27,108 nt of DNA from IMG/VR virus record IMGVR_UViG_3300032516_004967, positions 1 through 27,108 of that record; one strand, given 5' to 3'. This stretch comes from a virus. Positions within the stretch are counted from its first letter, which is position 1, and each line of letters begins with the position of its first letter. The notes beneath the pieces are model-generated. The model worked only from the letters and a program-made list of their open reading frames with translations, was not told where the DNA came from and did not search any database. This document shows positions 1 through 16,406 of this stretch, in pieces. Both the position numbers and the translations under genes were made by a program.

Positions 1-100
1 TAGGAAGCGGCAAGCACGTACAGGCAACAGCCAAAGGTATGCAATGCCAATGTCCAAAGTGTTGTGAAACTATTTAACGGGCGGCATACCTTTGCCACCG
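1..100 (+). mobile_element. Integron-like cassette 0, 3' end only
   Basis: This is the tail of a cassette whose gene lies left of the window. Its last bases before the R'' box (AGGCAAC, 22-28) contain GGAAGCGG, which also occurs at the equivalent place in cassettes 1 and 3, so it belongs to the same family. No coding sequence can be assigned here. From the rule seen in cassettes 1-6, its unseen left end should begin close to GTTGCCTGTA followed by an A or AA and then TGCTTGCC. Confidence 0.65.
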
Positions 101-106
101 TTATAC
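22..106 (+). other. attC-like site 0
   Basis: The R'' box is AGGCAAC (22-28) and the R' box is GTTATAC (100-106). The arms CCAAAGGTATGC (31-42) and GCATACCTTTGC (84-95) pair at 11 of 12 positions. The loop between them is about 40 nt. The predicted strand exchange point is between G100 and T101. R'' and R' do not match each other because R' belongs to the next cassette, as expected in an integron array. Confidence 0.75.
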
Positions 107-1008
107 GCAATGCTGCCCTTAAAACATTATTAGAGTTTGCGGCGACCAAGAACGCGGCATCGTGCCGCGAAGAGAAAGGCAAAGCTCGTGATAGTATCGT
201 GGTTTAGTGCTGGAGTGTCGAGCGCAGTGGCAACCAAAATTGCCAACCCAGACAGAATTATTTATATAGATATTGACGACCAGCACCCAGATACATACCG
301 TTTCATTGCTGATTGTGAGAAATGGTTTAATAAAAAAATTGAGATATTAAAATCACCGCTTCGCAATGTAGAAAATGCATGTATGCAAGCTGGCTTTATA
401 CGGTTACCACGCCGCAATCCAAAGTGTACTGAATTATTAAAAAAGAGAGTACGGAAAGAATGGGAATATTTAAACGGAGTTGGGCATACTTACGTCTGGG
501 GGTTTGATTGTAACGAGAAAAGGCGCTCCGAATCTACGCTAAATGGTATGCCAAAACACAAGCACCTTTTCCCTATTTTAAACAGAACAAAAGCTGAAGT
601 ACACGGCATTTTAGAAGTGGCAGGAATTAAGCGTCCTGCCATGTACGACATGGGGTATGAAAATAATAATTGTATTGGATGCGTGGCCGGTGGGATGGGT
701 TATTGGAATAAAATCAGAATTGATTTTCCAGAAGTTTTTAAAAAGCGTTGCGAGATGGAGCGCACGATACAGGAAAAAGGTATAGCTGGAAGCAGAATTT
801 TAAATGAATGTTATCTTGATGAACTTGACCCAACGCGAGGAAAAGAACAAAGCGTAATTATGCCAGACTGCGGAATGTTTTGCGAAATCCAAGAAGCGCA
901 TCCCTGCGCCGAGAGGCCGCCGCAAGACACTGCGGAAGCGGGCAGCACATGCGTATAACTCACAAAGCCCGCAAGCCTCAAAGCAGGCCAGCGGGCGTTT
1001 GTGGGACG
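101..1008 (+). mobile_element. Integron-like cassette 1 (PP-loop enzyme)
   Basis: The cassette runs between the cut points of attC-like sites 0 and 1. Its start GTTATACGCA (from 100) is the exact reverse complement of its end TGCGTATAAC. After a break (A against CA on the tail strand) the match resumes with TGCTGCCC. A second paired segment is 137-147 with 915-925, 10 of 11 bases. Self-complementary hairpins lie at similar depth from each end: CGCGGCA/TGCCGCG at 153-169 and GCGCA/TGCGC at 896-909. Confidence 0.8.
188..958 (+). CDS. PP-loop / PAPS-reductase-like enzyme (phage type)
   Basis: This is a 256-residue protein starting at GTG 188, placed after AGAAAGG and just after the cassette leader hairpin. 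A TTG at 137 would extend the frame but lies in the leader inverted repeat. The N-terminus has the nucleotide-binding PP-loop variant SAGVSSA (residues 7-13), typical of phage proteins annotated as phosphoadenosine phosphosulfate reductase-like. The YIDIDDQHPDT segment and Cys residues in NNNCIGC (about residue 160) and MPDCGMFCEI (about 225-235) fit that group. The substrate is unknown; the superfamily adenylates or reduces varied substrates, including tRNA and DNA bases. The last roughly 20 residues are read through the cassette tail, and the TAA stop lies inside the R'' box GTATAAC. Confidence 0.75.
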   Translation: MIVSWFSAGVSSAVATKIANPDRIIYIDIDDQHPDTYRFIADCEKWFNKKIEILKSPLRNVENACMQAGFIRLPRRNPKCTELLKKRVRKEWEYLNGVGHTYVWGFDCNEKRRSESTLNGMPKHKHLFPILNRTKAEVHGILEVAGIKRPAMYDMGYENNNCIGCVAGGMGYWNKIRIDFPEVFKKRCEMERTIQEKGIAGSRILNECYLDELDPTRGKEQSVIMPDCGMFCEIQEAHPCAERPPQDTAEAGSTCV

Positions 1009-1014
1009 TTGCTT
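953..1014 (+). other. attC-like site 1
   Basis: R'' is GTATAAC (953-959) and R' is GTTGCTT (1008-1014), 62 bp overall. The arm CACAAAGCCCGC (961-972) pairs with GCGGGC-G-TTTGTG (991-1003), leaving one unpaired G in the right arm, a hallmark of attC sites. An inner GCCT/AGGC stem (975-978, 985-988) closes a small loop. The stop codon of the upstream gene is inside R''. Confidence 0.85.
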
Positions 1015-1090
1015 GCAATTTCGGAATCTCTGGAATTGTAGGCGGTGGCAAGACATTCATGCCGAAGCGGCATGGGAAGAAAAATGAACC

Positions 1091-2110
1091 ATGAAATTTC
1101 TATCACTTTTTTCTGGTATCGGTGGTTTCGACTTGGGTCTGGAACGTGCCGGAATGAGGTGTGTTGGCCAAGTGGAAAAAGACGAATACTGCCTTGCGGT
1201 TTTAGAGCATCACTGGCCGGCAGTCAAAAGGATTGCGGATATTTATGACGTTACAGAATCAGACTTCGGAGCAGTTGAACTTATTTGCGGGGGGTTCCCC
1301 TGTCAGCCATTCTCTTTTGCCGGGAAAAAGCGAGGCCAGAAAGATGACCGCTACCTCTGGCCGGAAATGCTGCGAGTTATCAAGGCATACCGGCCCACTT
1401 GGGTACTTGGTGAAAACGTTGCTGGAATCGTCGGCGTGGAACTCGACAAAGTGCTTGCTGACTTGGAAAACGAAGGGTATGAGTTGCAAGCGTTTATTAT
1501 TCCAGCTTGCGCGGTCGATGCCCCGCACGAACGGAAGCGGGTCTGGATTGTCGCCAGACGATGGTCGTCGCATGTGGATGACTCCGAAAGCGGCAGACGG
1601 GGAATTTTGCACACCGAGAACATCGGGCCGACCAGTGGAGAAATCAACGCATCTTGCCACGCAAGTGAAGTTATGGCCCACGGTAACGGTCAAGGATGCG
1701 GAGAACGACGGAGGCCCGAGCCAGTACAACCGGAACAGCATTCCGCTCAATGCTCCGGTCAAAATGTTCCCTACGCCGTCAACGATGGACACAATCGAAC
1801 GGAAGGGAATGCGACCGAGCAGGGCCGCGACGAATCGGACAACGGGATATTTGAGCGAGGCCATACCTGGGAGCCTGAACCCGACGTGGGTCGCATGGCT
1901 GATGGGATACCCAACAGAGTGGCTCAACTCCGTGCCCTGGGAAACGCGGTCGTCCCGCAGGTCGTCGAAGAAATCGGGCGGTGTATCATCGAAGCAGAAA
2001 GAACCGGCACAATCTGTGCCGGAAGAGCCGCCGCGGAGCACTGCGGAAGATTCCGAAACAGCAAGCAACAGCCGCAAGCCAAAACTGGCGAAGTCGGCTT
2101 TGGAATGTGA
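1091..2110 (+). CDS. C5-cytosine-specific DNA methyltransferase
   Basis: This 339-residue protein transfers a methyl group from S-adenosylmethionine to C5 of cytosine in DNA. All main motifs are visible in order: motif I FSGIGGFDLGLERAG (residues 7-21), the catalytic motif IV GGFPCQPFS (67-75), motif VI ENV (about 107), motif VIII RKRVWIVA (about 148-155) and motif X ALGNAVVPQ (about 285). It starts at ATG 1091 after GGGAAGA. The region between motifs VIII and X, holding the target-recognition domain, is low-complexity and typical of phage Dcm proteins. The C-terminal extension after about residue 300 is encoded by the cassette tail and attC-like site 2. No partner restriction enzyme is seen, so it is likely an orphan enzyme, possibly for protection of phage DNA. 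Confidence 0.9.
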   Translation: MKFLSLFSGIGGFDLGLERAGMRCVGQVEKDEYCLAVLEHHWPAVKRIADIYDVTESDFGAVELICGGFPCQPFSFAGKKRGQKDDRYLWPEMLRVIKAYRPTWVLGENVAGIVGVELDKVLADLENEGYELQAFIIPACAVDAPHERKRVWIVARRWSSHVDDSESGRRGILHTENIGPTSGEINASCHASEVMAHGNGQGCGERRRPEPVQPEQHSAQCSGQNVPYAVNDGHNRTEGNATEQGRDESDNGIFERGHTWEPEPDVGRMADGIPNRVAQLRALGNAVVPQVVEEIGRCIIEAERTGTICAGRAAAEHCGRFRNSKQQPQAKTGEVGFGM

Positions 2111-2117
2111 ATTATAG
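1245..2117 (+). CDS. Overlapping alternative-frame ORF inside the methyltransferase gene
   Basis: A second frame stays open for about 290 codons across the methyltransferase gene, from ATG 1245 (TTG 1233 is also possible). Its translation is not random: it has LFAGGSPVSHSLLPG near the start, MTATSGRKCCEL, LWPTVTVKDAENDGGPS, and near the end LNPTWVAWLMGYPTEWL. I recognise that last motif from the C-terminal regions of phage proteins linked to cytosine methyltransferases. The same bases in the main frame encode the equally recognisable GRMADGIPNRVAQLRALGNA. No convincing ribosome binding site precedes it. It may be a translated overlapping gene, a frameshift extension, or an evolutionary relic of frame switching. 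Expression is unproven. Confidence 0.35.
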   Translation: MTLQNQTSEQLNLFAGGSPVSHSLLPGKSEARKMTATSGRKCCELSRHTGPLGYLVKTLLESSAWNSTKCLLTWKTKGMSCKRLLFQLARSMPRTNGSGSGLSPDDGRRMWMTPKAADGEFCTPRTSGRPVEKSTHLATQVKLWPTVTVKDAENDGGPSQYNRNSIPLNAPVKMFPTPSTMDTIERKGMRPSRAATNRTTGYLSEAIPGSLNPTWVAWLMGYPTEWLNSVPWETRSSRRSSKKSGGVSSKQKEPAQSVPEEPPRSTAEDSETASNSRKPKLAKSALECEL

Positions 2118-2150
2118 TCGCCAGCTTCGGCTGTGCGGCACACGTTGTAC
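2063..2150 (+). other. attC-like site 2
   Basis: R'' is AAGCAAC (2063-2069) and R' is GTTGTAC (2144-2150). The arms ACAGCCG (2068-2074) and CGGCTGT (2128-2134) pair, and inside them CTGGCG (2085-2090) pairs with CGCCAG (2119-2124). The methyltransferase reading frame runs into this site and stops at 2110. Confidence 0.75.
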
Positions 2151-3333
2151 AAAATTCGCCCCGCTCTGAATTTATAGGTGGCGGCAGGAAAAACGGCGCG
2201 TCGTGCGCCGGGGAAGGAAAGAAAATGCAACCGAACCAGAAGAACTTCTGCGGTGGAAATTTTCAAGATTGGCTTGAAGTCAATCTAATTGATAAATGCA
2301 ATGGTAAGTGTGCGTGGTGCATCGAAAAGAACGGGTATCATCCAGAAGAACACGCACCGTGGTGGATTATTGCGTCTCAGGCTCTTTCGTCTGGGAAAAC
2401 CAACATCATTTTGCTTGGTGGTGAGCCGACGCTTTACCCAAACTTGAAAGAAACGATACAAATTATTTCTTCGGCTGGTCGTAAAGTGTGGATTACGACA
2501 AACGGCGGGAAACTATCGCCAGAGTTTGTAAAGTTAAAGCTGGTAGGAATTACCGGCATAAACATTTCGGTGCATAACTTTGATTTGGAACAGAACAAAA
2601 GAATTGTCGGAGTCAATCTTGAACGCCTTTCGGATTCGGTTTCCGCTTTACATGAAATCGAAGCAAGCGTAAGATTAAACTGCAACTGTATAGCGGGGCA
2701 CGTTGATTCAGTTGAAAAGATAGAACAATACATTCTATGGGCAAAGTCTATAGGTGCCGACAAAATCAGATTCGCAGAGTTGAAGCAAGACGATGGTGGC
2801 TTTGTAGATTTAGCGAAAGTTCTGAATTACAAATACGGTTTGAACGACAATCCATTTACCTGCGGATGCAATAGCGATGCTGTTATTCATGGCGTACCTG
2901 TGAATTTTCGACAGATGTGTGGCTTGCAAACTTCGCGTAGAGAAAAGCCAGACGATCCGGTTCAGTACGAGAAACAGGTTCTGTATTATGATGGAAAGTT
3001 TTATGACGGATGGCAAACATCAATTCAGGAGGATGAAATGCAAGACAAGGACATTGTTAAGATTCTTCGTTCGGTTGAAAAAGGAGAGTTGACTTCGGAA
3101 GAGGCTTTTGCCCAACTGAAGGGGATTAAGGAAAAAGAAATCGTGCGAGAGGTGGTTCGATATGAAAGCTCCAATGGTTGCCAATACTAAGAGCGCACGT
3201 CCTGTGCGCGGAATGCCGCCACGGGAGCACTTCGGAAGCGGGGCGAACTTCGTACAACAGCCGCAGCACAAAATACGGCTTGACACTGTGGAATAATGTT
3301 TATAGGCCGTACTTCGGGCGAGTGCCTGAAACG
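2145..3333 (+). mobile_element. Integron-like cassette 3 (radical SAM)
   Basis: The start GTTGTAC matches the reverse complement of its end at 3252-3258. After an A/G mismatch, AA and a second A/G mismatch, it continues with TTCGCCCCGCT. The distal segment GTGGCGGCA (2178-2186) pairs perfectly with TGCCGCCAC (3214-3222). Hairpins CGGCGC/GCGCCG (2194-2210) and GCGCAC/GTGCGC (3193-3209) lie at matching distances from the two ends. Confidence 0.8.
2225..3190 (+). CDS. Radical SAM protein, MoaA-like fold
   Basis: This 321-residue protein has the radical SAM cluster motif CX3CX2C as CNGKCAWC (residues 20-27), which holds the 4Fe-4S cluster that cleaves S-adenosylmethionine to a 5'-deoxyadenosyl radical. 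LGGEPTL (about 60) is the usual GGEP SAM-binding motif, and VWITTNGG follows. A later CGCNSD region and FRQMCG supply further Cys residues that could bind an auxiliary cluster. The start ATG 2225 has a good GGGGAAGG site. The substrate is unknown. The last 50 residues begin right after an internal AGGAGG and ATG (3038) in the same frame, so a separate short product is possible. The gene ends just before the cassette tail hairpin. Confidence 0.8.
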   Translation: MQPNQKNFCGGNFQDWLEVNLIDKCNGKCAWCIEKNGYHPEEHAPWWIIASQALSSGKTNIILLGGEPTLYPNLKETIQIISSAGRKVWITTNGGKLSPEFVKLKLVGITGINISVHNFDLEQNKRIVGVNLERLSDSVSALHEIEASVRLNCNCIAGHVDSVEKIEQYILWAKSIGADKIRFAELKQDDGGFVDLAKVLNYKYGLNDNPFTCGCNSDAVIHGVPVNFRQMCGLQTSRREKPDDPVQYEKQVLYYDGKFYDGWQTSIQEDEMQDKDIVKILRSVEKGELTSEEAFAQLKGIKEKEIVREVVRYESSNGCQY

Positions 3334-3339
3334 TTGGTA
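3252..3339 (+). other. attC-like site 3
   Basis: R'' is GTACAAC (3252-3258) and R' is GTTGGTA (3333-3339). The inner stem is TACGGC (3274-3279) with GCCGTA (3306-3311). Outer pairing is weak: GCAC (3266-3269) with GTGC (3322-3325) and bulges. The left half resembles site 2 (CAACAGCCGCA) while the right half does not, which suggests a hybrid or decayed site. Confidence 0.65.
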
Positions 3340-3586
3340 GACATGTTTCGCTCTTTGAATAAATATGGCGAGTGCTGTACCACAGTCAGACGCTTGTGAG
3401 GTTATAAGCACCACTGAGCGATCCTGAATAGACAGGTGGTGTGAATGGCTAATAGCACTCGCCTTTAATTAAGGTGGAGCGAAACACGTTCCACCAACAA
3501 ATAAAGCCTGCAATGCCGCCTGTCCCTATTAGGACTGGATCGCTTTAAATGCGGCGTGCGGCGGCAAAGCAGGCGTTTATCGGACG
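3334..3586 (+). mobile_element. Integron-like cassette 4, no credible ORF
   Basis: This 253-bp cassette covers most of the gene-free stretch 3191-3616. Its start GTTGGTAGAC matches the reverse complement of its end CACCAAC (3492-3498) for GTTGGT, then GA, and after the usual break TGTTTCGCTC. The distal segment GGCGAGTGCT (3367-3376) pairs perfectly with AGCACTCGCC (3454-3463). I see no open frame with a ribosome site that fits inside. Its content between the repeats is the structured element listed separately. Confidence 0.75.
3367..3463 (+). ncRNA. Candidate structured RNA of cassette 4
   Basis: A perfect 10-bp closing stem (3367-3376 with 3454-3463) encloses several hairpins: CTGT/ACAG (3375-3378, 3382-3385), GCTTGT/ATAAGC with one G-U pair (3392-3397, 3404-3409) and CACCAC/GTGGTG (3409-3414, 3436-3441). 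Some pairs share single bases at their edges, so not all need form together. The stem is followed by TTTAATT. It matches no RNA family I know. The closing stem is also the distal part of the cassette inverted repeat, so the structure may act in DNA rather than RNA. Confidence 0.4.
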
Positions 3587-3592
3587 TTGTCT
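3492..3592 (+). other. attC-like site 4
   Basis: R'' is CACCAAC (3492-3498) and R' is GTTGTCT (3586-3592). The arm ATAAAGCCTGC (3501-3511) pairs with GCAGGC-G-TTTAT (3569-3580), with one extra G in the right arm. Inner stems are GCCGCC (3515-3520) with GGCGGC (3560-3565) and GTCC/GGAC (3522-3535). This is one of the most canonical sites of the array. Confidence 0.85.
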
Positions 3593-3870
3593 AACATTTA
3601 GCCTTTGGAGGATTATATGAGCAGCACACGATACAAAATAAGATCATTCGGTTATGCTAATGGGCATTTGTCATGGCACGTTTACGATAGCATCGAACAT
3701 TACGATATACACACCGCTAACACTTTAATGGAAAGTTCTAAAGCACCTATTTGCTGTAAAAAAATATGTGCTGCTCTTAATTATATGGAAGCGGCTAAAC
3801 GGTCAGACAACAAACGCATTAAGCAAGGGCTAAAGCCACATGCGAAGCGCACATCTTAATGCTTCAACCG
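3587..3870 (+). mobile_element. Integron-like cassette 5 (small unknown protein)
   Basis: The start GTTGTCT matches the reverse complement of its end AGACAAC (3805-3811). The match resumes with AC and, after the break (A against CG), TTTAGCC. The distal segment GAGCAGCACA (3619-3628) pairs perfectly with TGTGCTGCTC (3767-3776). These repeats extend into both ends of the coding region, so the first and last parts of the gene are complementary. Confidence 0.8.
3617..3859 (+). CDS. Small hypothetical cassette protein (80 aa)
   Basis: An 80-residue protein of unknown function, beginning MSSTRYKIRSFGYANG. The ATG at 3617 is chosen because GGAGG lies directly upstream with good spacing; the in-frame TTG at 3605 is part of that site. 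The protein is basic at its C-terminus (KRIKQGLKPHAKRTS) and contains a CC pair (APICCKKICAALNY) in the middle. Residues from about 63 onward are encoded by the attC-like site. No membrane segment or signal peptide is visible and I recognise no family. Confidence 0.65.
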   Translation: MSSTRYKIRSFGYANGHLSWHVYDSIEHYDIHTANTLMESSKAPICCKKICAALNYMEAAKRSDNKRIKQGLKPHAKRTS

Positions 3871-3876
3871 TTGGTG
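3805..3876 (+). other. attC-like site 5
   Basis: R'' is AGACAAC (3805-3811) and R' is GTTGGTG (3870-3876). The arms GCATTAAG (3816-3823) and CTTAATGC (3855-3862) pair perfectly. The site is 72 bp and overlaps the 3' end of the cassette 5 gene. Confidence 0.75.
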
Positions 3877-4165
3877 GAAATAAATTTTTCTTTTGGAGAT
3901 TATAGGTGACCGCAAAAACCAGATTAGAATTTTGTGCATTTAACGATTATAGGTGCAAAGCACATTTTTCCTGTGCTTTATGCAATGATTTGTGGAATGC
4001 GGCCACTGGCGCTGCTGTAGAAAGGTTTACATCCACCAACAGCGTTAGGGATGCTATTGTTGCGTTATACGGTCGGTGGGCTACTACCGTTGGTAAGGAT
4101 TCTGACCATACGCAGGTTGACAATTTCGTAGATTGGATGCAACAACAGCACCCGTAACGCAAACG
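3871..4165 (+). mobile_element. Integron-like cassette 6 (small unknown protein)
   Basis: The start GTTGGTGGA is the exact reverse complement of its end TCCACCAAC (4032-4040). After the break (AA against TG) the match resumes with TAAA and TTTCT. The distal segment GTGACCGC (3906-3913) pairs with GCGGCCAC (3999-4006) at 7 of 8 bases and contains the GTG start codon of the gene. This is the last cassette recognised before ordinary phage genes. Confidence 0.75.
3906..4157 (+). CDS. Small hypothetical cassette protein (83 aa)
   Basis: An 83-residue protein of unknown function. It starts at GTG 3906, with GGAG seven bases upstream. The N-terminal half has several Cys and His residues (FCAFNDYRCKAHFSCALC), possibly a metal-binding site, but this is only a pattern. 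The second half, from about residue 43, is encoded within the long attC-like site, as is common for cassette genes. No transmembrane segment is evident. Confidence 0.6.
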   Translation: MTAKTRLEFCAFNDYRCKAHFSCALCNDLWNAATGAAVERFTSTNSVRDAIVALYGRWATTVGKDSDHTQVDNFVDWMQQQHP

Positions 4166-4171
4166 TTGGTG
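4034..4171 (+). other. attC-like site 6, array right end
   Basis: R'' is CACCAAC (4034-4040) and R' is GTTGGTG (4165-4171), 138 bp overall. The arm AGCGTTAGGG (4041-4050) pairs with CCC-G-TAACGC (4151-4160), again with one extra G in the right arm. A second GTTGGT at about 4089 lacks the paired arm and was not used. I find no further CACCAAC partner downstream, so the array ends here. Confidence 0.7.
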
Positions 4172-4200
4172 TCTATGTTTGCATAAGAAAGGATTAACAA

Positions 4201-4619: not shown

Positions 4620-4851
4620 AACGTGGTTAGATTACGCCGCTGCCACGATGGACACGCGAACGGAATATCACGAGCGGATTTGGGATGGTCGCAACCATAG
4701 CCGCGAGGACATACGGGAATCGGCTATTGCGGAATTGGCGGCACTTCGGGCGGGTCGCGTTATGCCATGCCAGCAGTATCAACGTGGGGTTGAATGTTGG
4801 ATTAACGGGGTCCGTATGCACTGTGCAGATGTACCATGTCAACTGTCATGA
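4591..4851 (+). CDS. Hypothetical phage protein (86 aa)
   Basis: An 86-residue protein of unknown function starting at ATG 4591 after GGGAAGGAAAA. The N-terminus has aromatic residues (NGYETWLDYAAATMDTR), the middle is a predicted helix (REDIRESAIAELAALRAGR), and the end carries three Cys residues, including GVECWINGVRMHCADVPC. No known domain was recognised. Confidence 0.6.
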   Translation: MIVPPPNGYETWLDYAAATMDTRTEYHERIWDGRNHSREDIRESAIAELAALRAGRVMPCQQYQRGVECWINGVRMHCADVPCQLS

Positions 4852-4875
4852 TAACCACGGCGTAAGGGGGACAAT

Positions 4876-5043
4876 ATGATCATCCGCAATTCTCACGGGC
4901 AATATTTTCATACCAGCAAATGGGGCAGTTATCCCATAAACGACGGCAACCCCGAAAATGACGTCGAGGATTTTGACGAGGAAAAATGGCAGGATAAACA
5001 GGACGAAATGCGCGAGGCTGAGGCCGATAGAAACGAGGAGTAA
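4876..5043 (+). CDS. Small acidic phage protein (55 aa)
   Basis: A 55-residue protein from ATG 4876, preceded by AAGGGGG. It begins MIIRNSHGQYFHTSKWGSYP, and its second half is very acidic (DVEDFDEEKWQDKQDEMREA). No family was recognised. The next gene starts one base after its stop, so the two are probably translated together. Confidence 0.6.
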   Translation: MIIRNSHGQYFHTSKWGSYPINDGNPENDVEDFDEEKWQDKQDEMREAEADRNEE

Positions 5044-5044
5044 T

Positions 5045-5212
5045 ATGGATGTATGTAAACTGCACGACCACACGATTGTTATCTACGAGTTCCGGTCTGG
5101 GTGTAAGGGTTGCCCGTTGTGTGAGGCCAAAGAAGAGATCGACCAGTGGGAACGCGAGGACCAGAAAAGGAGGAAGGCCGAAGATGCCAAAAACAATCCT
5201 TCAGGAAACTGA
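5045..5212 (+). CDS. Small Cys-rich phage protein (55 aa)
   Basis: A 55-residue protein from ATG 5045, immediately after the previous stop. Cys and His residues in MDVCKLHDHT and SGCKGCPLCEA (about residues 19-29) form a likely zinc-binding site, followed by a charged helix (EEIDQWEREDQKRRKAEDAK). Small proteins with a CPLC motif and a charged tail are common in phages. The role is unknown. Confidence 0.6.
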   Translation: MDVCKLHDHTIVIYEFRSGCKGCPLCEAKEEIDQWEREDQKRRKAEDAKNNPSGN

Positions 5213-5351
5213 TAAGATAATCCTGCATATCAGGCGGTTGACGGATGAATTGCGGCAGACCCGGATACGGCTTAAGGCGAAGGAAGATTTATGCCTTTAT
5301 TGCAAGTACAAGGCCGAGTGCGACAAAATCGATCCTAAAGAATCGCCCTGA
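5184..5351 (+). CDS. Small phage protein with CX2C and helix (55 aa)
   Basis: A 55-residue protein from ATG 5184, with AGGAGG ten bases upstream and a 29-bp overlap with the previous gene. It has a long charged helix (IILHIRRLTDELRQTRIRLK) followed by LCLYCKYKAEC, which could bind a metal. Its function is unknown. It is the last gene before a 118-bp non-coding gap that turns sharply AT-rich. Confidence 0.6.
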   Translation: MPKTILQETDKIILHIRRLTDELRQTRIRLKAKEDLCLYCKYKAECDKIDPKESP

Positions 5352-5469
5352 TTTTATCAAGCATAAAATTCTCGCTGGCGGCATAACCAAAGCATAATTC
5401 ATATATATTTTGGAAGATTTAACCTAATAACATATTGACATTTATATTTGAGTATTATATATTTTATAT
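5352..5469 (+). other. Non-coding AT-rich gap
   Basis: This 118-bp gap contains no supported gene. It turns sharply AT-rich at about 5395 and carries the leaderless promoter listed separately at its right end. It marks the entry into the low-GC endonuclease island. Confidence 0.6.
5435..5463 (+). promoter_or_regulatory. Sigma-70-type promoter, leaderless start
   Basis: TTGACA (5435-5440), a 17-nt spacer, then TATATT (5458-5463). The ATG of the next gene begins 7 nt after the -10 box, where transcription should start, so the mRNA is predicted to be leaderless. No Shine-Dalgarno sequence precedes that ATG. The region is AT-rich, so chance hits are possible, but the same geometry recurs at 21812-21840. 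Confidence 0.55.
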
Positions 5470-6138
5470 ATGAAAAATCTATTATTAACAACTGGGGAAG
5501 CGGTTATTATTGATGACGAAGATTTTGAAAGAGTTTCAAGATATAATTGGTATAATTCACATGGATATGCTTTTTGCACAAGCAGAAAAATGAAAATATC
5601 ATTACACAGGTTTATTTTAAACGCTAAAAAAGGTGAGTTTGTTGATCATAAAGATTTCAACACTTTTAATAATATGAAATCAAATATTAGAATTTGTACA
5701 TGGGCACAAAATTCACAAAATAGAGCAAAGGTTAATAAAAATACATCATCAAAATATAAGGGAGTTTGTTGGAGCAGACATTTTAAAAGATGGATGGCAG
5801 GAATTAAACATAATGGTAAATATTATGCAAAAAAATTTATTCATGAAATAAATGCAGCTATTTGGTATGATAAAATAGCCAAAAAATTATATGGTGAATT
5901 CGCATATTTAAATTTTAAAGATGGATATAAAGGAGAAATACCAGAAGAAAGAAAATTTAGCTCAAAATATATAGGTGTTATTTGGTCAAAAGAAAAATGT
6001 AAATGGAGATCGGAAATAAGAAAAGATAAAAAAGCTTATTCTCTCGGTTATTTTACTAATGAAAAAGAAGCATACTTATCATATAGAAAAAAAGAATTAG
6101 AGCTTTATGGAAAAGAAAGAAGAAAAAATAGTGAATAA
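5470..6138 (+). CDS. HNH homing endonuclease with two AP2 domains
   Basis: A 222-residue putative site-specific DNA endonuclease of the kind that moves itself between phage genomes. The HNH part covers about residues 1-85, with SLHRFILNAK, VDHKDFNTFNN and SNIRICTWAQNSQNR matching the usual HNH-3 pattern. Two AP2-type DNA-binding domains follow: SKYKGVCWSRHFKRWMAGI (from about 95) and SKYIGVIWSKEKCKWRSEI (from about 163). The gene is much more AT-rich than its neighbours, a sign of recent entry. It starts directly at a predicted transcription start without a ribosome site. Confidence 0.88.
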   Translation: MKNLLLTTGEAVIIDDEDFERVSRYNWYNSHGYAFCTSRKMKISLHRFILNAKKGEFVDHKDFNTFNNMKSNIRICTWAQNSQNRAKVNKNTSSKYKGVCWSRHFKRWMAGIKHNGKYYAKKFIHEINAAIWYDKIAKKLYGEFAYLNFKDGYKGEIPEERKFSSKYIGVIWSKEKCKWRSEIRKDKKAYSLGYFTNEKEAYLSYRKKELELYGKERRKNSE

Positions 6139-6562
6139 GACCGCGATATTTAGTGGTAGATATTGCCCACCCCATTTAGGGCACATTTTAACGATATTTG
6201 AGCTTTGTAAAAAATTTAATAGGGTTGTTGTTGTGATTCTTGATTATCCGAGCCGGGAATTTTGTACAGCACACGAAGCAAAAGATATTTTTGATAAATT
6301 ATTTAAATATATATTTAATGGCATTTACGATGGAAAAATTTATGTAGTTATAAATAATATTCATTTTGCCAAAATAACAGTTAGCGAATATTTATCTTTT
6401 TTAAAATCAATTAGAACTAATTATTATGATTCTATATATTTCAGTGGCAATAATAGGGTTATAAAACATATGCAAAAATTAAACATAAGGCATAAATTTA
6501 TTGGAAGAAGTTTAGATAGGTTTTTTGAAGGTAAAAAAATAAGGAAATACCTATCATCCTAA
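6107..6562 (+). CDS. HxGH-type nucleotidyltransferase, NMN adenylyltransferase-like
   Basis: A 151-residue member of the cytidylyltransferase-like superfamily. SGRYCPPHLGHI (about residues 16-27) carries the HxGH nucleotide-binding motif, and GRSLDRFFEGKKIRKYL near the end resembles the second phosphate-binding motif seen in NMN adenylyltransferases. It could make NAD from NMN or transfer CMP/AMP to another small molecule; the sequence does not decide. It overlaps the endonuclease by 32 bp from ATG 6107. A GTG at 6131, with an 8-bp overlap, is an alternative start. It shares the low GC of the endonuclease. Its stop overlaps the stop of the converging gene. Confidence 0.7.
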   Translation: MEKKEEKIVNKTAIFSGRYCPPHLGHILTIFELCKKFNRVVVVILDYPSREFCTAHEAKDIFDKLFKYIFNGIYDGKIYVVINNIHFAKITVSEYLSFLKSIRTNYYDSIYFSGNNRVIKHMQKLNIRHKFIGRSLDRFFEGKKIRKYLSS

Positions 6563-7776
6563 CTCGTCCTCCATGTATTTTTGTCTGTCCAGTCTCCCAC
6601 AACAAGTATATGTTCATGGGCCGATGCTCCCTCGGCTGGACTCATCCACGACGGATACCAAGAGTCTAAGCACGATCCGATACCGTCTGGTATTTTCACA
6701 TCAATACCTTTAAATTTAATCCCTACCAATTTATTTAAACAAAATTCTGGTATTCCTTTCGCTATGGCGTCGTCTTTATTCGTATAGGTGGTTTTATGCG
6801 GGTTGAATTTCTTCGGGTCAATCCATAACTTATTTTTACTATGCCACCAATACCCGTCATGTTTAAACCAGAACCACTGGCAGCATTTTACTCCTGATTG
6901 CGATACCGGATTCTTAGGCCCCAAGCTGAACCATAGTGGCATTCCGGTATCACCCCTACATTCCGGTGTACGCCAACGGTATTCGTCCAGATGTGCCTTC
7001 TCGCATTCCGAGACATAAGCCAATCCCTGATCGGTCGTAATCCAGTCTGCAATAATGCACATATCCATGTCACGATCATTCGGTATGAAATCTCCGTGCC
7101 TGATCGCCCCTAACGCCGTACCGAATCCTATAAACATGGCATGGTCTATTCCTGCCTTTCGACCACATTCGTATAATTGCCCGAGCAATTCAACACCGTT
7201 TGTTTTCCTGGCTTCATCGAAGAAAATGTCGTGTATATTCCATTCGACCGGATCATGTTTAAGATCGACAAACCAATCCGATTTATATGAATCGCATACC
7301 GAACCTGCCATATAAGGCAACTTGAATTCAATGGCCTGTATTTGGCTCAACGGAACGTGCCATAATCCATCACCACCCATGGTCCCGTTTTTTTTACGAA
7401 TTTCATGAACCGTATTGGCATTGCAAAACAGCCATTCCTTGGGAAAGCGGTGGGCGCCAGAGGCTATCGTCCCTTTGCGCGAGTCTTCGTATAGGTGTAT
7501 AATTATCGTCGATTCTAGGGCTGTTGCCGTGATTGTGGTGGGGTTTATATCTTCTACCTTAATATTAAACAGTTCGCAGCGGGTTAAAACATCAGAAACT
7601 GATACCCCGTAAAGCCCTATGTGGATTTCATTATCGACCGTGATATTGCGGTTACAGCAAAAATTCCAAAGAGAGGGACCGGTAAGAAACCAAGTTCCGA
7701 TTCGGTTGAAGAAAACGGTGCAGAGGTTAATGAGTTGGTTATTCAAGACCACCGTCTTACTATTCCCAAGCAACAT
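6559..7776 (-). CDS. LicD-like nucleotidyltransferase-fold sugar modifier
   Basis: About 405 residues from ATG 7776; GTG 7752 is also possible, as neither has a strong ribosome site. FIGFGTALGAIRHGDFIP followed by NDRDMDMCI matches the LicD/fukutin family, which transfers phosphorylated groups such as phosphocholine onto glycans. An earlier segment, WFLTGPSLWNF then DNEIHIGLYG (about residues 26-55), looks like a second, degenerate copy in which the metal-binding acidic residues are not preserved. It is the last gene of the minus-strand sugar cluster. Its stop overlaps the stop of the converging plus-strand gene. Confidence 0.7.
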   Translation of the reverse strand: MLLGNSKTVVLNNQLINLCTVFFNRIGTWFLTGPSLWNFCCNRNITVDNEIHIGLYGVSVSDVLTRCELFNIKVEDINPTTITATALESTIIIHLYEDSRKGTIASGAHRFPKEWLFCNANTVHEIRKKNGTMGGDGLWHVPLSQIQAIEFKLPYMAGSVCDSYKSDWFVDLKHDPVEWNIHDIFFDEARKTNGVELLGQLYECGRKAGIDHAMFIGFGTALGAIRHGDFIPNDRDMDMCIIADWITTDQGLAYVSECEKAHLDEYRWRTPECRGDTGMPLWFSLGPKNPVSQSGVKCCQWFWFKHDGYWWHSKNKLWIDPKKFNPHKTTYTNKDDAIAKGIPEFCLNKLVGIKFKGIDVKIPDGIGSCLDSWYPSWMSPAEGASAHEHILVVGDWTDKNTWRTS

Positions 7777-8836
7777 TGCGGATATAACCCGTATTAAAGA
7801 TATCCTTATTCCACCATTTTTCCGATTTCTTGATGAGTTCCATTTGGGTCCACCCCATAAATGTGCAGAAATCGTTGGAAATAGTCTCGTCATACGCCCC
7901 TTCTTCCTTACGTATTTTATCAGCAAGTTCTTCTTTCGTAATTATCCCATATCTTACCCATCTGCTACCAATGTCAACCACCCGACCAATTCCGTATTTC
8001 ATGAACTTTAAATAATAATTTTGGAGGTACGCAACCGAATCAATCTGCGCGTAATCATCAATGTATCCCATTCTCTGCCACGAATCAAGGGTTTTAAACC
8101 CGTACTTTTTTGCAATTTCTACATTTTCCAAATCATTCCATGGATAGAACCACGAAAGATAAATGGATTGTATGCCAGCATCTTCCAACTGGGCAGCCGA
8201 TGGGTGTTGGAGAAATTTGCACGGTTTCAATTTAGAAAGTAATTCCTCGCCTTTTGACTGAACCACGTTGTTGTTGATTTGTCCGTTAGCATCCCAGGTA
8301 TCAGTAGCATTGGGGCCTCCGTACATCCACGAAACATTCTCTCCGTAAATAAGCAGTTTTATGCCTTTCTCAATCGCTACTTGTAAGGGCCATGCGTAAA
8401 TCGCTTTATCAACAGCCCAGTTCGTGCAGCCGAGGTGTTCAAGGGTAATCAGGGTAGATTCCCGTATAAAATTAGGATCGAGGGCTAGAGTAATCATATC
8501 GCAGTTAAAGGCCGAAGCAATTGTCTTGTAATTGTGCGTCCCTTCCGGGGTATGGGTAAACGGATCGGTAACGCAAACAAGCAACGGGTTCATATTGAAT
8601 TTGTGCTTCAGGGTATAAACCTGAAAGAACGAGTCCTTCCCCCCGGAAACCGGAATAATGCAGTCGTAAGACCCGTCGTATTTGCGGTGTTCATTGCAGA
8701 GGTTTTTCAGGTAATCCTGTCTGACGGTCCAGTTGATATTCGATCGTGCTTCGAATCGAATACAGGCGGGGCAAACGCCGTCAACAAATTCAACACCGGG
8801 TTTTGTAGGAATAAGACATTTTTTACATCTAATCAT
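7760..8836 (-). CDS. N-acetyl sugar amidotransferase (WbpG/PseA family)
   Basis: A 358-residue enzyme of the family that converts an N-acetyl group on a sugar into an acetamidino group. The N-terminus has a zinc-type CKKC and CPAC pair (residues 4-23). The PP-loop ATP-binding motif PVSGGKDS (about 63-70) activates the amide. Known relatives include WbpG and PseA, acting on O-antigen and pseudaminic acid sugars. WbpG is thought to receive ammonia through HisH/HisF-like partners, and none is found in this window. It starts at ATG 8836 after AAGGAGG, which overlaps the stop of the previous gene. Confidence 0.85.
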   Translation of the reverse strand: MIRCKKCLIPTKPGVEFVDGVCPACIRFEARSNINWTVRQDYLKNLCNEHRKYDGSYDCIIPVSGGKDSFFQVYTLKHKFNMNPLLVCVTDPFTHTPEGTHNYKTIASAFNCDMITLALDPNFIRESTLITLEHLGCTNWAVDKAIYAWPLQVAIEKGIKLLIYGENVSWMYGGPNATDTWDANGQINNNVVQSKGEELLSKLKPCKFLQHPSAAQLEDAGIQSIYLSWFYPWNDLENVEIAKKYGFKTLDSWQRMGYIDDYAQIDSVAYLQNYYLKFMKYGIGRVVDIGSRWVRYGIITKEELADKIRKEEGAYDETISNDFCTFMGWTQMELIKKSEKWWNKDIFNTGYIRNVAWE

Positions 8837-9419
8837 AAATCCTCCTTATAACAATGAATATCCCGCCGCATTTTAAAATACTGATGGGTTTCCATTCGAC
8901 GACCGTCCCCAATCGTCCAAGCATTTCGTTGTATTCGTCCCAGGTCGCGATAAAACAATCCACCGATTTTGCATTGCCTTTTTTGTGAGAGTTAGCCCAA
9001 TGAACCAATAGTAAACCGTCTTTAGTCAGGCATGACAACCATGTTTTAATAGCCAATTCCGGATCCCAGGCATGGTCTAAACTGTTGCTGTAAATCAGGT
9101 CTACCTTATCGCGCCACTCTTCGCGCATATCATGGAAATCATGCCGTATCATGTATTCTATTTTTTCGGCCCATTCCCCGATATCCGTGCCTATTATGGT
9201 GGTATCCCTGCCAAAAAATCCGCCCAGGCTTAATACCTCATATCCGTTTCTGGCGCCGTGGCATATCACGAATTTAGGGGTACCGTATTTTTGGATAATG
9301 TAATCGGCGATTATTCCGAGTTCAATATCGGTCACCCAGTTTCTGGAATGCTTTAAATGAAATGCCGTGTTCTGGCTTTCGACGTATTCGGCATAATTCT
9401 TATATTTATAAAGGTCCAT
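8829..9419 (-). CDS. Class I SAM-dependent methyltransferase-like protein
   Basis: A 196-residue protein with a Rossmann-type pattern: KFVICHGARNGYEVLSLG (about residues 48-65) as the SAM-binding loop, TTIIGTDIGEWAEKI as the second strand, VDLIYSNSLDHAWDPE as motif IV, and LTKDGLLLVHWANSHKKG. It probably methylates a sugar or precursor in the cluster, but the target is unknown. It starts at ATG 9419, one base after the stop of the previous gene, and overlaps the amidotransferase start by 8 bp. Confidence 0.7.
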   Translation of the reverse strand: MDLYKYKNYAEYVESQNTAFHLKHSRNWVTDIELGIIADYIIQKYGTPKFVICHGARNGYEVLSLGGFFGRDTTIIGTDIGEWAEKIEYMIRHDFHDMREEWRDKVDLIYSNSLDHAWDPELAIKTWLSCLTKDGLLLVHWANSHKKGNAKSVDCFIATWDEYNEMLGRLGTVVEWKPISILKCGGIFIVIRRIYD

Positions 9420-9420
9420 T

Positions 9421-10185
9421 TTATACGCTCTTCGGTGGCTTTTCTGTTTTTACGGCTTCCACCCTTGTTGTGTAATCGATCTTTGTTCGGTCAATAAACT
9501 TTGCTTTGAAGAAATCGTATTCGGTTTCATGGTATGCAAGCGGGTCGGATACCATCCTGAATCCGGCCAGCTTTAAATACTTTTTCATCTTATTGTAATT
9601 CCACCACGAAATATGATACGCCGGATATTGCGATTGAAATTCAGGGGTAAAATCAACGTAGGTTTTTACTATCCGGTACATTTCCTCGTAAATTTCTTCC
9701 GGCGTTGCGCTCTTATTAATTATGTCCCACAACTCTTCCTTGGTAATGCGGTCAAGAAGATGGGAGCAGGTGAGGTCCAGCAAGCATTTTTCCTTCGTAT
9801 TATTCTGGCCGTGAACCAACCAATAATCGAAAACCGCCTGGTCGGTCATGTTCGGGTCTTTCAAATCAGCAAGCATCTTATCGGAGTCCGGTATTGCTAC
9901 CCGAAAAACCCCGCGCGGCCTTAAAATCCGTTTGACTTCTTTAAAGACGATCAGTACTTTATCGTCGGTTATATGCTCCATTGTGTGTTCGGTATAGACG
10001 GCTTCAACCGAAGAGTCCTTAATGGGAAGCGGTTCTCCGCTCATTAAGTTGTGTTGGATATCCACCCTTGTATAATCCCGTTTTGATTTATAATGCTCAA
10101 AGGCGTAATCAAGGTTACTCCATCCGGCTTCTCTATGGCAACTATTCCCACCACCGATGTTTAAATACTTGACGTTATATAGCAT
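9421..10185 (-). CDS. SAM-dependent methyltransferase, Methyltransf_11 type
   Basis: A 254-residue enzyme with KYLNIGGGNSCHREAGWSN (from residue 7) as the SAM-binding region, SVEAVYTEHTMEHITDD as motif II/III, and VKRILRPRGVFRVAIPDSDK as the motif IV-V segment, typical of methyltransferase domain 11. It is a clear paralogue of the enzyme at 19790-20542, sharing the IGGGN-CHRE-GW pattern and the YTEHT-EH motif. The substrate is likely a glycan intermediate. The ATG has GGGAGAAC upstream. Confidence 0.8.
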   Translation of the reverse strand: MLYNVKYLNIGGGNSCHREAGWSNLDYAFEHYKSKRDYTRVDIQHNLMSGEPLPIKDSSVEAVYTEHTMEHITDDKVLIVFKEVKRILRPRGVFRVAIPDSDKMLADLKDPNMTDQAVFDYWLVHGQNNTKEKCLLDLTCSHLLDRITKEELWDIINKSATPEEIYEEMYRIVKTYVDFTPEFQSQYPAYHISWWNYNKMKKYLKLAGFRMVSDPLAYHETEYDFFKAKFIDRTKIDYTTRVEAVKTEKPPKSV

Positions 10186-10194
10186 TTGTTCTCC

Positions 10195-11154
10195 CTATTT
10201 TTTCAATTCAATGTAGTCATAACAGTTTCTGCAAAGTTTCAATGAATCGTGGTTCATATTGTAAAGTATATGCCGGTATGACTTCAGGTTTTCGCATTGC
10301 CAGATATCTTCCAACGATTCGATATCTAGGTCTCCCATTTTCATATAATTATCATAGTCCCAACAGCAAGCGGTAACGCCGCCGTCCCAATCGATGGATA
10401 ACTTATCGAACACTTCGGGGCAATGAGGGTGTACTTTGTTTACCGATTCCAAGCGGATGATATTGTTCAATTTTATTTTATCGTCAAAACTAAGGTTGGT
10501 GCTGGCGACATTTATGTAATCTAAAACCGTCTTTCCAACCGTAACGAGATCACAAAATTTTCTGACCGATTTTTTGAATTTCCCAATCTCGTCTGGGGTT
10601 TCATAGGTTACTGTTGTAGAAATATGAATGTATGGTTTTTCGGCACCTCTTCTTATGGAGTACAGTTCTTTGGCGTTTTCGATAAGCGTTTCGTAATCGC
10701 CACCGGCCCGCATTTCGTTATAGCTGAAACCGTCTATCCCCTGAAAGGATATCTTTATGCTATCCAATCCCGAATCGATGAGCGTCTTGATGTATTCCGG
10801 GGTTAATTTACTTCCGTTGGTGTTCAGGTGACAGAGAATATTATTTTCTTTCGCGATTTTAATAAATTCGGGGAGTAATTTATGCAATGTCGGTTCGCCA
10901 CATCGGATAAACCTTAATGGTGTTCCGTGTTTTGAAATCTCTTTTATTATTTTCCGATACAATGATTCCGACATAAACCCCTTTGGTCTCTTGCTTAATC
11001 CCAATCCGGTCGGACACATGAGACATCTAAAATTGCAGGCGTTTGTTACTTCGATATCGATACACTTGGGAAAAGCTCCGGGGTTATTAAGTTTTTCCGT
11101 ATAATCGGAAGAATTACACTGCTTATAGACGGAGTCAAAAGGATTCGTTCTCAT
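10195..11154 (-). CDS. Radical SAM enzyme with SPASM-like C-terminus
   Basis: A 319-residue protein with the radical SAM motif CNFRCLMC (about residues 41-48). FIRCGEPTLH follows as a GGEP variant, then LNTNGSKLTPEYI. The C-terminal part has a SPASM-like Cys set: HCPEVFD, VTACCWDYDNYMKMGDL and LKLCRNCYDY, which would bind an auxiliary iron-sulfur cluster. In sugar clusters such enzymes can dehydrogenate or epimerise sugars, but the actual reaction here is unknown. It starts at ATG 11154 with an ATGA overlap with the previous gene. Confidence 0.85.
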   Translation of the reverse strand: MRTNPFDSVYKQCNSSDYTEKLNNPGAFPKCIDIEVTNACNFRCLMCPTGLGLSKRPKGFMSESLYRKIIKEISKHGTPLRFIRCGEPTLHKLLPEFIKIAKENNILCHLNTNGSKLTPEYIKTLIDSGLDSIKISFQGIDGFSYNEMRAGGDYETLIENAKELYSIRRGAEKPYIHISTTVTYETPDEIGKFKKSVRKFCDLVTVGKTVLDYINVASTNLSFDDKIKLNNIIRLESVNKVHPHCPEVFDKLSIDWDGGVTACCWDYDNYMKMGDLDIESLEDIWQCENLKSYRHILYNMNHDSLKLCRNCYDYIELKK

Positions 11155-11873
11155 GTTTCATCCCATACCGGTATAATCTGATTGAGCATTGACCGGGGGT
11201 TTATGGTTTCCATTGAAAGTCCGTAGTATTCATAAGTATCCTGGACTATACCGAGCGTTCTTTTTGCAAGTAAATGCTGGCTGTTCTGATCGCGCCCCTC
11301 GTTCCGGACCTGTTCCAAAATCTCGTCGTATCCAAGGTAAAAATATCTGTTGTCGTAAAGGTCGATGCCACCAAATATGATTTTCTTGTAACTCATTTGA
11401 ACGGCAAAATGCAAGGCGTCCCAAATCGTACCCCTACCGTGGTGAATACCCTCTTCAAATATATCCGAATGCTGAAAACTTTTCGCACTGCATCCGTACT
11501 GAATTTCCTTGAAAATATATCCGTCGCCTTCGTATTTATCGGTATTCCTGGCGTGTTGATAATTGTCTTTCCGGTAGCTCATGTCCTTGACTATCTTGCA
11601 TGAATTTTTCTGGTATGCCATTAGTTCTATGAAATCGTCAAGAGTATGCCCGGGTTCTATTCTCTTCGGAGTGGCGCATTGTTCCCTGACGATATACCAT
11701 GTCATGGGCCGTTTCATTTTAAGCATCCAATTCATTCCAAGGGTATCGTAATTGGTGTTTAAAATTGTCCACTGCTCTTCGGTGATTCGATTCATGCTGT
11801 AACCGGTACCGAATACCGCAAGAGCGTCGTGTTGCTTTTTACCAAGGAATTGCTGTTGGGTAATCTGATTCAA
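11151..11873 (-). CDS. Candidate sialyltransferase-like enzyme (GT42/DUF115-like)
   Basis: A 240-residue protein. AVFGTGYSMNRITEEQW (from about residue 19) resembles the N-terminal GxGPSL strand-loop of GT42 sialyltransferases and of DUF115/Maf proteins. GMNWML follows as the next strand. GRGTIWDALHFAVQMSYKKI then GGIDLYDN match the segment around the GID motif of Campylobacter CstII, and QHLLAKRT plus NPRSMLNQIIPVW fit its C-terminal His and P-SLL regions. These likenesses are from memory and by eye. With CMP-sialate genes in the same cluster, a nonulosonic acid transferase role is a reasonable inference. It overlaps the radical SAM gene by 4 bp. Confidence 0.5.
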   Translation of the reverse strand: MNQITQQQFLGKKQHDALAVFGTGYSMNRITEEQWTILNTNYDTLGMNWMLKMKRPMTWYIVREQCATPKRIEPGHTLDDFIELMAYQKNSCKIVKDMSYRKDNYQHARNTDKYEGDGYIFKEIQYGCSAKSFQHSDIFEEGIHHGRGTIWDALHFAVQMSYKKIIFGGIDLYDNRYFYLGYDEILEQVRNEGRDQNSQHLLAKRTLGIVQDTYEYYGLSMETINPRSMLNQIIPVWDET

Positions 11874-11887
11874 TGAAATTCCTCTTA

Positions 11888-12199
11888 TTAATTTTTATAG
11901 TTATTGAGGTCAATCGTTTCGACTTTGTAGTCCGGCGCCGTCCTCTTGAGAAATTCTTTTTCGTAATCAGGGTTCTTATCCCACCAGTCCTTGTCCCATT
12001 CCTTGTTGTATTCGTACAGTTTCAGGGACATTCTTCTTGCCATGCTTGTTGCGATAGCCGCAAGTTGTCGAATCTTGAGGTGATTTTCGGTATCGCTTTG
12101 GGCGTTGTCATTGATCTTTCTCAACACTTCGCAGATATGCAACGTCGGGCCTTTTTTGTTCATCTTGATCTTAATTGCCCTGCGTGGAAAATCTTCCAT
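11888..12199 (-). CDS. Hypothetical protein (103 aa) in the sugar cluster
   Basis: A 103-residue protein of unknown function, highly charged, with an N-terminal basic stretch (PRRAIKIKMNKKGP), a likely helical middle (HLKIRQLAAIATSMARRMSL) and a Trp/Lys/Asp-rich part (EYNKEWDKDWWDKNPDYEKE). No signal peptide or membrane segment. It lies 3 bp after the FkbM-like gene and 14 bp before the sialyltransferase candidate. It could be an accessory protein or an unrelated phage protein. Confidence 0.65.
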   Translation of the reverse strand: MEDFPRRAIKIKMNKKGPTLHICEVLRKINDNAQSDTENHLKIRQLAAIATSMARRMSLKLYEYNKEWDKDWWDKNPDYEKEFLKRTAPDYKVETIDLNNYKN

Positions 12200-12202
12200 A
12201 AT

Positions 12203-16399: not shown

Positions 16400-16406
16400 A
16401 ACCGGC

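What the first reader, a model, noticed from the sequence alone, without database searches (positions are those of the whole stretch)
100..4040. Each cassette has its own long matched inverted ends, broken at the same place
In all six complete cassettes the first ~20 nt (counted from the GTT) are the reverse complement of the last ~20 nt, well beyond the 7-base R box. The match is specific to each cassette: start/end share GTTATACGCA + TGCTGCCC in cassette 1, GTTGCTTGC + TTTCGGAATC in 2, GTTGTAC + TTCGCCCCGC in 3, GTTGGT + TGTTTCGCTC in 4, GTTGTCT + TTTAGCC in 5, GTTGGTGGA + TAAA in 6. Every match is interrupted near nt 10-12, where the tail strand (as reverse complement) carries a G and the leader an A. 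A second paired segment sits ~34-46 nt from the ends in all six (137-147/915-925; 1042-1049/2027-2034; 2178-2186/3214-3222; 3367-3376/3454-3463; 3619-3628/3767-3776; 3906-3913/3999-4006). Six cassettes with different sequences keeping the same pairing pattern is covariation. In the circular cassette this would turn the attC hairpin into a far longer one, present only when the cassette is free. To my knowledge ordinary integron cassettes show only R-box-length matching.
Basis: partly seen in the sequence, partly recalled or inferred. Interest (0 to 1): 0.93.

Follow-up and report, generated by a model that had tools for sequence, protein, structure and literature searches.

The report
Phage integron cassettes with matched ends
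Several phages carry strings of swappable gene cassettes in which the two ends of each cassette are long mirror-image matches unique to that cassette, about 20 (sometimes 45) letters instead of the usual 7 to 11, which suggests an undescribed rule for how such cassettes fold and move.

Summary
In a phage contig without a recognisable integrase, all six complete integron-like cassettes have ends that pair with themselves: stem P1 (nt 1-10), an A opposite C at nt 11 in 6/6, stem P2 (nt 12 to about 21), and P3 near nt 35-45. In 226 putative ordinary integron cassettes complementarity falls to background by nt 12-13, and no second stem exceeds 6 bp; the window has 8, 11, 11, 10, 7 and 4. The same architecture occurs in a 219-kb phage contig (9 cassettes), a phage-like contig in a Desulfobacterota-group MAG (4), and without clear P3 in the cultured Polaribacter phages P12002L/S (10). 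Over the first 19 cassettes P2 holds 173/190 Watson-Crick pairs (shuffled maximum 113); head nt 11 is A in 19/19. Corrections: known cassettes already match over 9-11 nt; cassette 6 is weak beyond nt 10; not every cassette in the 219-kb array has it; and the pairing is also predicted in single-stranded integrated cassettes, so it is not confined to free circles. In P12002L/S, ORFs run against the end motif, which argues against an mRNA role. Best reading: a new variant of integron cassette with an extended, mismatch-marked recombination site. Function is inferred, not shown.

The parts
26..102 (+). recombination site (attC-like) between cassette 0 and 1: AAC...GTT hairpin; tail of cassette 0 (1-28) has GGAAG-P2'-C-P1'
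   Evidence: fold; R1 hit 1-133 (training sequence)
100..118 (+). cassette 1 head: P1 100-109, A 110 (nt 11), P2 111-118
940..959 (+). cassette 1 tail: P2' 940-947, C 948 plus one extra base 949, P1'/R'' 950-959
132..147 (+). cassette 1 P3 (pairs with 915-931)
957..1010 (+). attC-like site 1, one extra G on the right arm
1008..1029 (+). cassette 2 head: P1 1008-1016, loop 1017-1018, P2 1019-1029; P3 1042-1049
2027..2069 (+). cassette 2 tail: P3' 2027-2034, P2' 2048-2058, P1' 2061-2069
2067..2146 (+). attC-like site 2, one extra G on the right arm
2144..2165 (+). cassette 3 head: P1 2144-2153, A 2154, P2 2155-2165; P3 2178-2186
3214..3258 (+). cassette 3 tail: P3' 3214-3222, P2' 3237-3247, C 3248, P1' 3249-3258
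3256..3335 (+). attC-like site 3 (poor hairpin)
3333..3353 (+). cassette 4 head: P1 3333-3342, A 3343, P2 3344-3353; P3 3367-3376; cassette has no obvious ORF
3454..3498 (+). cassette 4 tail: P3' 3454-3463, P2' 3477-3486, P1' 3489-3498
3496..3588 (+). attC-like site 4, one extra G on the right arm
3586..3603 (+). cassette 5 head: P1 3586-3595, A 3596, P2 3597-3603; P3 3619-3628 overlaps the ORF's first codons
3767..3811 (+). cassette 5 tail: P3' 3767-3776, P2' 3793-3799, P1' 3802-3811
3809..3872 (+). attC-like site 5; its region is 86% identical in the 219-kb phage contig
3870..3891 (+). cassette 6 head: P1 3870-3878, A 3880, P2 3881-3891 (weak, with wobble); P3 3906-3914
3998..4040 (+). cassette 6 tail: P3' 3998-4006, P2' 4019-4029, P1' 4032-4040
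4038..4167 (+). attC-like site 6, one extra G on the right arm
4165..4176 (+). last core site GTTGGTGTCTAT; shares A11 T12; no matching tail found in the window
137..958 (+). cassette 1 ORF, PAPS reductase domain (PF01507)
1091..2110 (+). cassette 2 ORF, C5 DNA methyltransferase (PF00145, first half only)
2225..3190 (+). cassette 3 ORF, radical SAM (PF04055)
3617..3859 (+). cassette 5 ORF, unknown; its C-terminus is encoded by the attC region
3906..4157 (+). cassette 6 ORF, unknown

Best explanation
This is an integron-type cassette array in a tailed-phage contig in which no tyrosine recombinase was detected (a CALIN, as far as the contig shows). Each cassette carries an extended form of the self-complementarity known for integron cassettes: P1 (the R boxes, about 10 bp), an A opposite C one helical turn from the G|TT crossover, P2 (about 10 bp), and, in most of the non-Polaribacter cassettes, a partly conserved internal loop and P3. 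I infer that the pairing acts on single-stranded or extruded DNA. In the excised circle it lengthens the folded attC arm from about 10 to 20-45 bp and so favours correct folding, cruciform extrusion and integration by an integrase supplied in trans. In the integrated single strand the same pairing ties head to tail, competes with the attC R-stem and would damp excision. The fixed mismatch could mark register for the recombinase. SHOWN: the pairing, its covariation, the near-fixed nt 11 mismatch, its recurrence in further phages, and different cassettes next to an identical flank in P12002L and P12002S. PREDICTED by folding: both conformations. INFERRED: the DNA-level role, the in-trans integrase, and the direction of the effect on integration and excision.
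For: Covariation: 15-cassette alignment, 91.3% of cells paired vs 58.1% in column shuffles; 16/20 pairs changed on both sides; score 0.829 vs 0.180 shuffled and 0.08-0.18 for slid structures; 19 cassettes, P2 173/190 vs shuffled maximum 113, head nt 11 A 19/19, tail C 17/19. Specificity: in 226 control cassettes the largest second stem is 6 bp; head-tail duplex energies -20 to -34 kcal/mol in the window vs control mean -13.9; TJE1 and Rctr41k arrays give none. Recurrence: 219-kb contig, MAG contig with three model hits, best E 2e-10, P12002L, P12002S. DNA rather than mRNA: in P12002L/S the annotated ORFs of the assigned cassettes run opposite to the A11 polarity, while in the other three arrays they run with it. 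Mobility: P12002L and P12002S share an identical flank up to ...TATCCGTT|GTT and then carry different cassettes, each with its own matched ends. No tyrosine recombinase in the window or the 219-kb record. attC folding from ssDNA or as cruciforms is established (PMC8946536); IntI1 recombined one P12002L attC (PMC9892861).
Against: No functional data on the extended part; published assays tested attC sites, not these junctions. The canonical RRRY of the R box is close to chance here (2-3 of 4 positions; controls mostly 3-4). The extra-helical base lies on the L' arm, not L'' as in canonical attC, in four of seven window sites and several related ones, so polarity relative to IntI rules is unresolved, and the P12002 flank comparison points the other way. 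No cognate integrase was identified. P3 is absent or weak in P12002L/S, and several heads in the 219-kb array lack a matching tail. Sequence conservation in the internal loop suggests a further role this model does not explain.
Confidence: 0.55

Rival explanations
1. RNA panhandle: the ends pair in each cassette's transcript, closing the ORF in a loop that controls translation, stability or insulation between cassettes.
For: The pairing is also predicted in the integrated context of short cassettes; the internal loop is partly conserved and top-strand G.T-compatible pairs occur in P2; in some cassettes P3 covers the start codon, e.g. cassette 5.
Against: In P12002L/S the ORFs lie on the other strand relative to the nt 11 polarity; cassette 4 has no obvious ORF yet has strong pairing; at nt 11 and in P1 the departures are A.C on the coding strand and G.T on the other strand.
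Confidence: 0.15
2. Relic of cassette formation: the matched ends are by-products of how genes become cassettes (fold-back or templated synthesis on a hairpin) and are not maintained by function.
For: Each body has its own near-perfect P2; one cassette in the 219-kb contig matches over 22 nt without a mismatch; R box plus attC appear to combine with different bodies; departures in P2 show no clear excess of wobble.
Against: Does not predict the near-fixed A.C at nt 11, the conserved T or G at nt 12, or the fixed P2 start; conserved loop motifs are unexpected.
Confidence: 0.15
3. Longer integrase binding arms in double-stranded DNA: the recombinase reads a 20-nt arm, and symmetry reflects two protein sites rather than folding.
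For: Fixed positions (A11, T/G12, P2 start) and a shared head motif even at the last core site.
Against: P2 sequence differs completely between cassettes (3-4 pair types at most positions), which direct sequence readout does not predict.
Confidence: 0.1
4. Chance or composition effect.
For: Cassette 6 alone is not significant beyond nt 10.
Against: Permutation, shuffle, slide and 226-cassette controls; recurrence in further contigs.
Confidence: 0.01

Closest known systems
Integron gene cassettes with attC sites (R''-L''-L'-R')
   Same: GTT/AAC core boxes, hairpin sites of about 54-136 nt between cassettes, own-head/own-tail R complementarity, promiscuous cargo, exchange beside a fixed flank in P12002L/S.
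   Different: Self-pairing continues past an almost invariant A.C at nt 11 into a second, and often a third, covarying stem; RRRY poorly kept; extra-helical base on the L' arm at many sites.
Phage CALINs (Qi et al. 2023, PMC9892861), including P12002L
   Same: Arrays of attC and cassettes without integrase in virulent phages, rich in DNA methyltransferases. P12002L itself belongs to the group described here.
   Different: The extended ends were not noted in the sections read; TJE1 shows only 8-nt matches.
Virus Rctr41k integron (KX853513)
   Same: Phage-borne array with methyltransferase cargo.
   Different: Has its own IntI-like integrase; its clear cassettes match over 9-11 nt only.
Ordinary cassette self-pairing of 9-11 nt (PMC2727003)
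   Same: Same principle: the two R boxes of one cassette pair on one strand.
   Different: Here 18-22 nt across a fixed mismatch, plus P3.

Membership tests
Integron cassette array (CALIN) | At least two attC-type hairpin sites with GTT/AAC cores, same orientation | tested here: met
   Seven AAC...GTT sites; clear hairpins at six, site 3 poor; one model fits all seven, which are its training set
Integron cassette array (CALIN) | R'' of a cassette complementary to its own R' | tested here: met
   At least 6 of the first 7 nt in all six cassettes
Integron cassette array (CALIN) | R box consensus GTTRRRY | tested here: not met
   GTT kept; RRRY 2-3 of 4 at all seven sites, controls mostly 3-4
Integron cassette array (CALIN) | Extra-helical G in L'' only (canonical strand polarity) | tested here: inconclusive
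   Extra base on the L' arm at sites 1, 2, 4 and 6 and at several related sites; none in P12002 sites examined by eye
Integron cassette array (CALIN) | No integrase beside the array | tested here: inconclusive
   No PF00589 match in the window or the 219-kb record, but the window's left end is missing
Integron cassette array (CALIN) | Recombination by an integron integrase | not testable with these tools
   Published only for the attC2 of the related P12002L (PMC9892861)
Complete integron | intI gene and attI | tested here: inconclusive
   intI not found; an attI-like shared flank is seen only in P12002L/S

The most novel reading that the evidence does not exclude
These phages use a distinct integron class whose integrase recognises an extended folded site (R stem, A.C mismatch one turn from the crossover, second stem), so that the same pairing promotes insertion of free circles and locks cassettes already integrated; or the paired ends are the signature of the still unknown process that turns a gene into a cassette.
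Probability: 0.35. Interest if true: 0.9.

Novelty: new variant of a known kind. Interest (0 to 1): 0.74.

Why it matters
Recombination at integron sites is thought to depend on a short folded hairpin. A lineage in which every mobile cassette keeps a private, covarying 20-45-nt match around a fixed mismatch would reveal a new structural determinant of cassette folding and direction, and may bear on how cassettes arise, which to my knowledge is unsolved. It occurs in cultured lytic phages (P12002L/S) with an established assay for one of their sites, so it can be tested now.

Tried and rejected
Motif and attC DNA patterns in viral contigs: one chance hit and none. Relatives via radical SAM, TerL and cassette 6 proteins: none, only about 30% TerL relatives, none; the hit came from cassette 5's C-terminus, which the attC encodes. 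PAPS-reductase relatives: only L232 has a cassette with a long match, 19 nt without an A.C. A scan for inverted repeats without attC or P1/P2 constraints was no better than reversed sequence and was dropped. Model R1 found nothing in 201 Chloroflexota-group genomes or about 3.5 Mb of held loci. A strand call from wobble type was abandoned: P1 departures favour one strand, P2 the other. Polarity from extra-helical bases conflicts with the P12002 flank comparison and is left open. TIR transposon reading rejected: the ends share no sequence between cassettes.

Full report
WHAT IS THERE. The window is a 27-kb virus record with phage terminase genes. At its left end seven AAC...GTT sites, hairpins except that site 3 is poor, separate six complete cassettes carrying a PAPS reductase, a C5 methyltransferase, a radical SAM protein, an ORF-less element and two small proteins. 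No tyrosine recombinase was found in the record.

THE OBSERVATION. Aligning each head with the reverse complement of its own tail gives stem P1 (nt 1-10), A opposite C at nt 11 in 6/6, and P2 from nt 12 in 6/6, with up to four pair types per position. Own pairs beat every permutation of heads and tails (1/720). Cassette 6 is weak beyond nt 10.

IS IT ORDINARY? The literature gives 9-11 nt of self-pairing for most cassettes (PMC2727003). I collected integrase-bearing loci from viral and bacterial genomes and extracted 226 putative cassettes from 48 arrays with my own finder, which requires a hairpin and an R-box match and so may include some false cassettes. Identity of head and tail falls from 0.94 at nt 7 to 0.25 at nt 13, and the longest second stem is 6 bp. 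The window's second stems are 8, 11, 11, 10, 7 and 4. Five of the six exceed every control. Few or no Bacteroidota integrons are in the control set, so I cannot exclude that some unsampled bacterial integrons share the feature.

RELATIVES. The last viral scan, with cassette 5's protein, hit a 219-kb phage contig (L363) through the attC-encoded C-terminus. It carries a long array of the same type next to a phage tmRNA; nine cassettes show P1-A.C-P2 with 8-10 of 10 P2 matches, eight of them with C opposite A11 on the MAFFT alignment. Other heads there (10350, 11684, 12017) have no matching tail. A covariance model of the sites found a third array on a phage-like 32-kb contig of a MAG in the Desulfobacterota-group set, with four such cassettes. 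A scan of the control loci for the same geometry gave 29 hits in 4.6 Mb, several of them from plain inverted repeats or low-complexity sequence, but five fell in one record, Polaribacter phage P12002L; four of these have A/G at nt 11, against none in shuffles. With P12002S there are ten such cassettes, nt 11 A/G in 10/10, P2 73/80 vs shuffled maximum 67; the last test partly benefits from having been selected on these features. P12002L's array was already published as a CALIN (PMC9892861); the extended ends are not mentioned in the sections I read.

COVARIATION. On 15 cassettes (window and L363) the proposed 20 pairs are 91.3% satisfied, 16 show two-sided changes, and the score is 0.829 against 0.180 for shuffles and at most 0.18 for slid structures. 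Over 19 cassettes P2 keeps 173/190 Watson-Crick pairs. The nine L363 and four MAG cassettes were picked for matching P2, so the independent statistics are those of the window; the nt 11 bases were not used in that selection.

HOW IT MIGHT WORK. Folding as DNA, both the circle junction and the integrated single strand of short cassettes adopt the head-tail pairing; in the integrated context R'' does not pair with the next R' except for one pair in one cassette. In a circle the pairing extends the attC arm; in the array it ties a cassette's ends together and would compete with attC folding. attC sites are known to fold from single strands and as cruciforms (PMC8946536). I therefore infer a DNA-level role that favours integration of free circles and restrains excision. 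Against an mRNA role: in P12002L/S the annotated ORFs lie on the opposite strand relative to the A11 polarity, whereas in the window, L363 and the MAG contig they lie with it.

MOBILITY. P12002L and P12002S are near identical over much of this region, share an identical flank up to ...AACTTGTTTTATCCGTT|GTT, and then carry different cassettes, each with its own matched ends. This is what capture at one fixed end would give, and shows that the matched ends stay with their cassette.

OPEN POINTS. The canonical RRRY of the R box is barely kept. At many sites the single extra base of the hairpin is on the L' arm, the reverse of canonical attC, while the P12002 flank points to the other polarity. 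No cognate integrase is known; the MAG has only sub-threshold integrase-family matches, some broken by stops. The partly conserved internal loop (head about CTTTGAAATTATAG, tail about GAACATTGCGGAA) is unexplained.

VERDICT. The thing works like, and mostly fits, an integron cassette array, but with an undescribed extension of the site; two canonical features are not met or unresolved, so I call it a new variant of a known kind.

Noticed in passing
L363 9273-9622 and 9611-9622: The 219-kb phage's cassette array begins directly after a phage tmRNA; its 3' end TCCACCA plus AC reads like the common R'' box (CCACCAAC), suggesting the array was founded at a tmRNA site.
   Followed up: partly
window 1091-2117: The C5 methyltransferase of cassette 2 is split over two frames (motifs continue in the 1233-2117 frame); the Pfam match covers only the first half. 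Frameshift, assembly error or pseudogene.
   Followed up: no
KX853513 (L182) 4680-10100: Virus Rctr41k carries an IntI-like integrase (45.5% to IntI1) and several cassettes; it is not in the published table of phage integrons that I read.
   Followed up: partly
Viral contigs: 272 IMG/VR candidate stretches encode relatives of integron integrases; phage-borne integron integrases may be more common than reported.
   Followed up: no
L232 9948-10753: A PAPS-reductase cassette in another phage CALIN without integrase has a perfect 19-nt head-tail match, without the nt 11 A.C, while its neighbours match over 7-13 nt.
   Followed up: partly
window sites 957-1010, 2067-2146, 3496-3588, 4038-4167; L363; G876 contig: The single unpaired base of the attC hairpin is a top-strand G on the right arm at many sites, the mirror of canonical attC.
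   Followed up: partly
L363 10068-10200 and 11104-11259: At nt 8 each head mismatches its own tail but matches the other cassette's tail, as if R-box segments had been exchanged between two cassettes.
   Followed up: no
window 6559-21269, minus strand: Long run of LicD-like, radical SAM and methyltransferase genes between the array and the terminase genes; looks like a modification or surface-sugar cluster.
   Followed up: no
G876 C114 and C293: Integrase-family fragments with internal stops in the MAG that holds the third array; possible decayed integron integrases.
   Followed up: no
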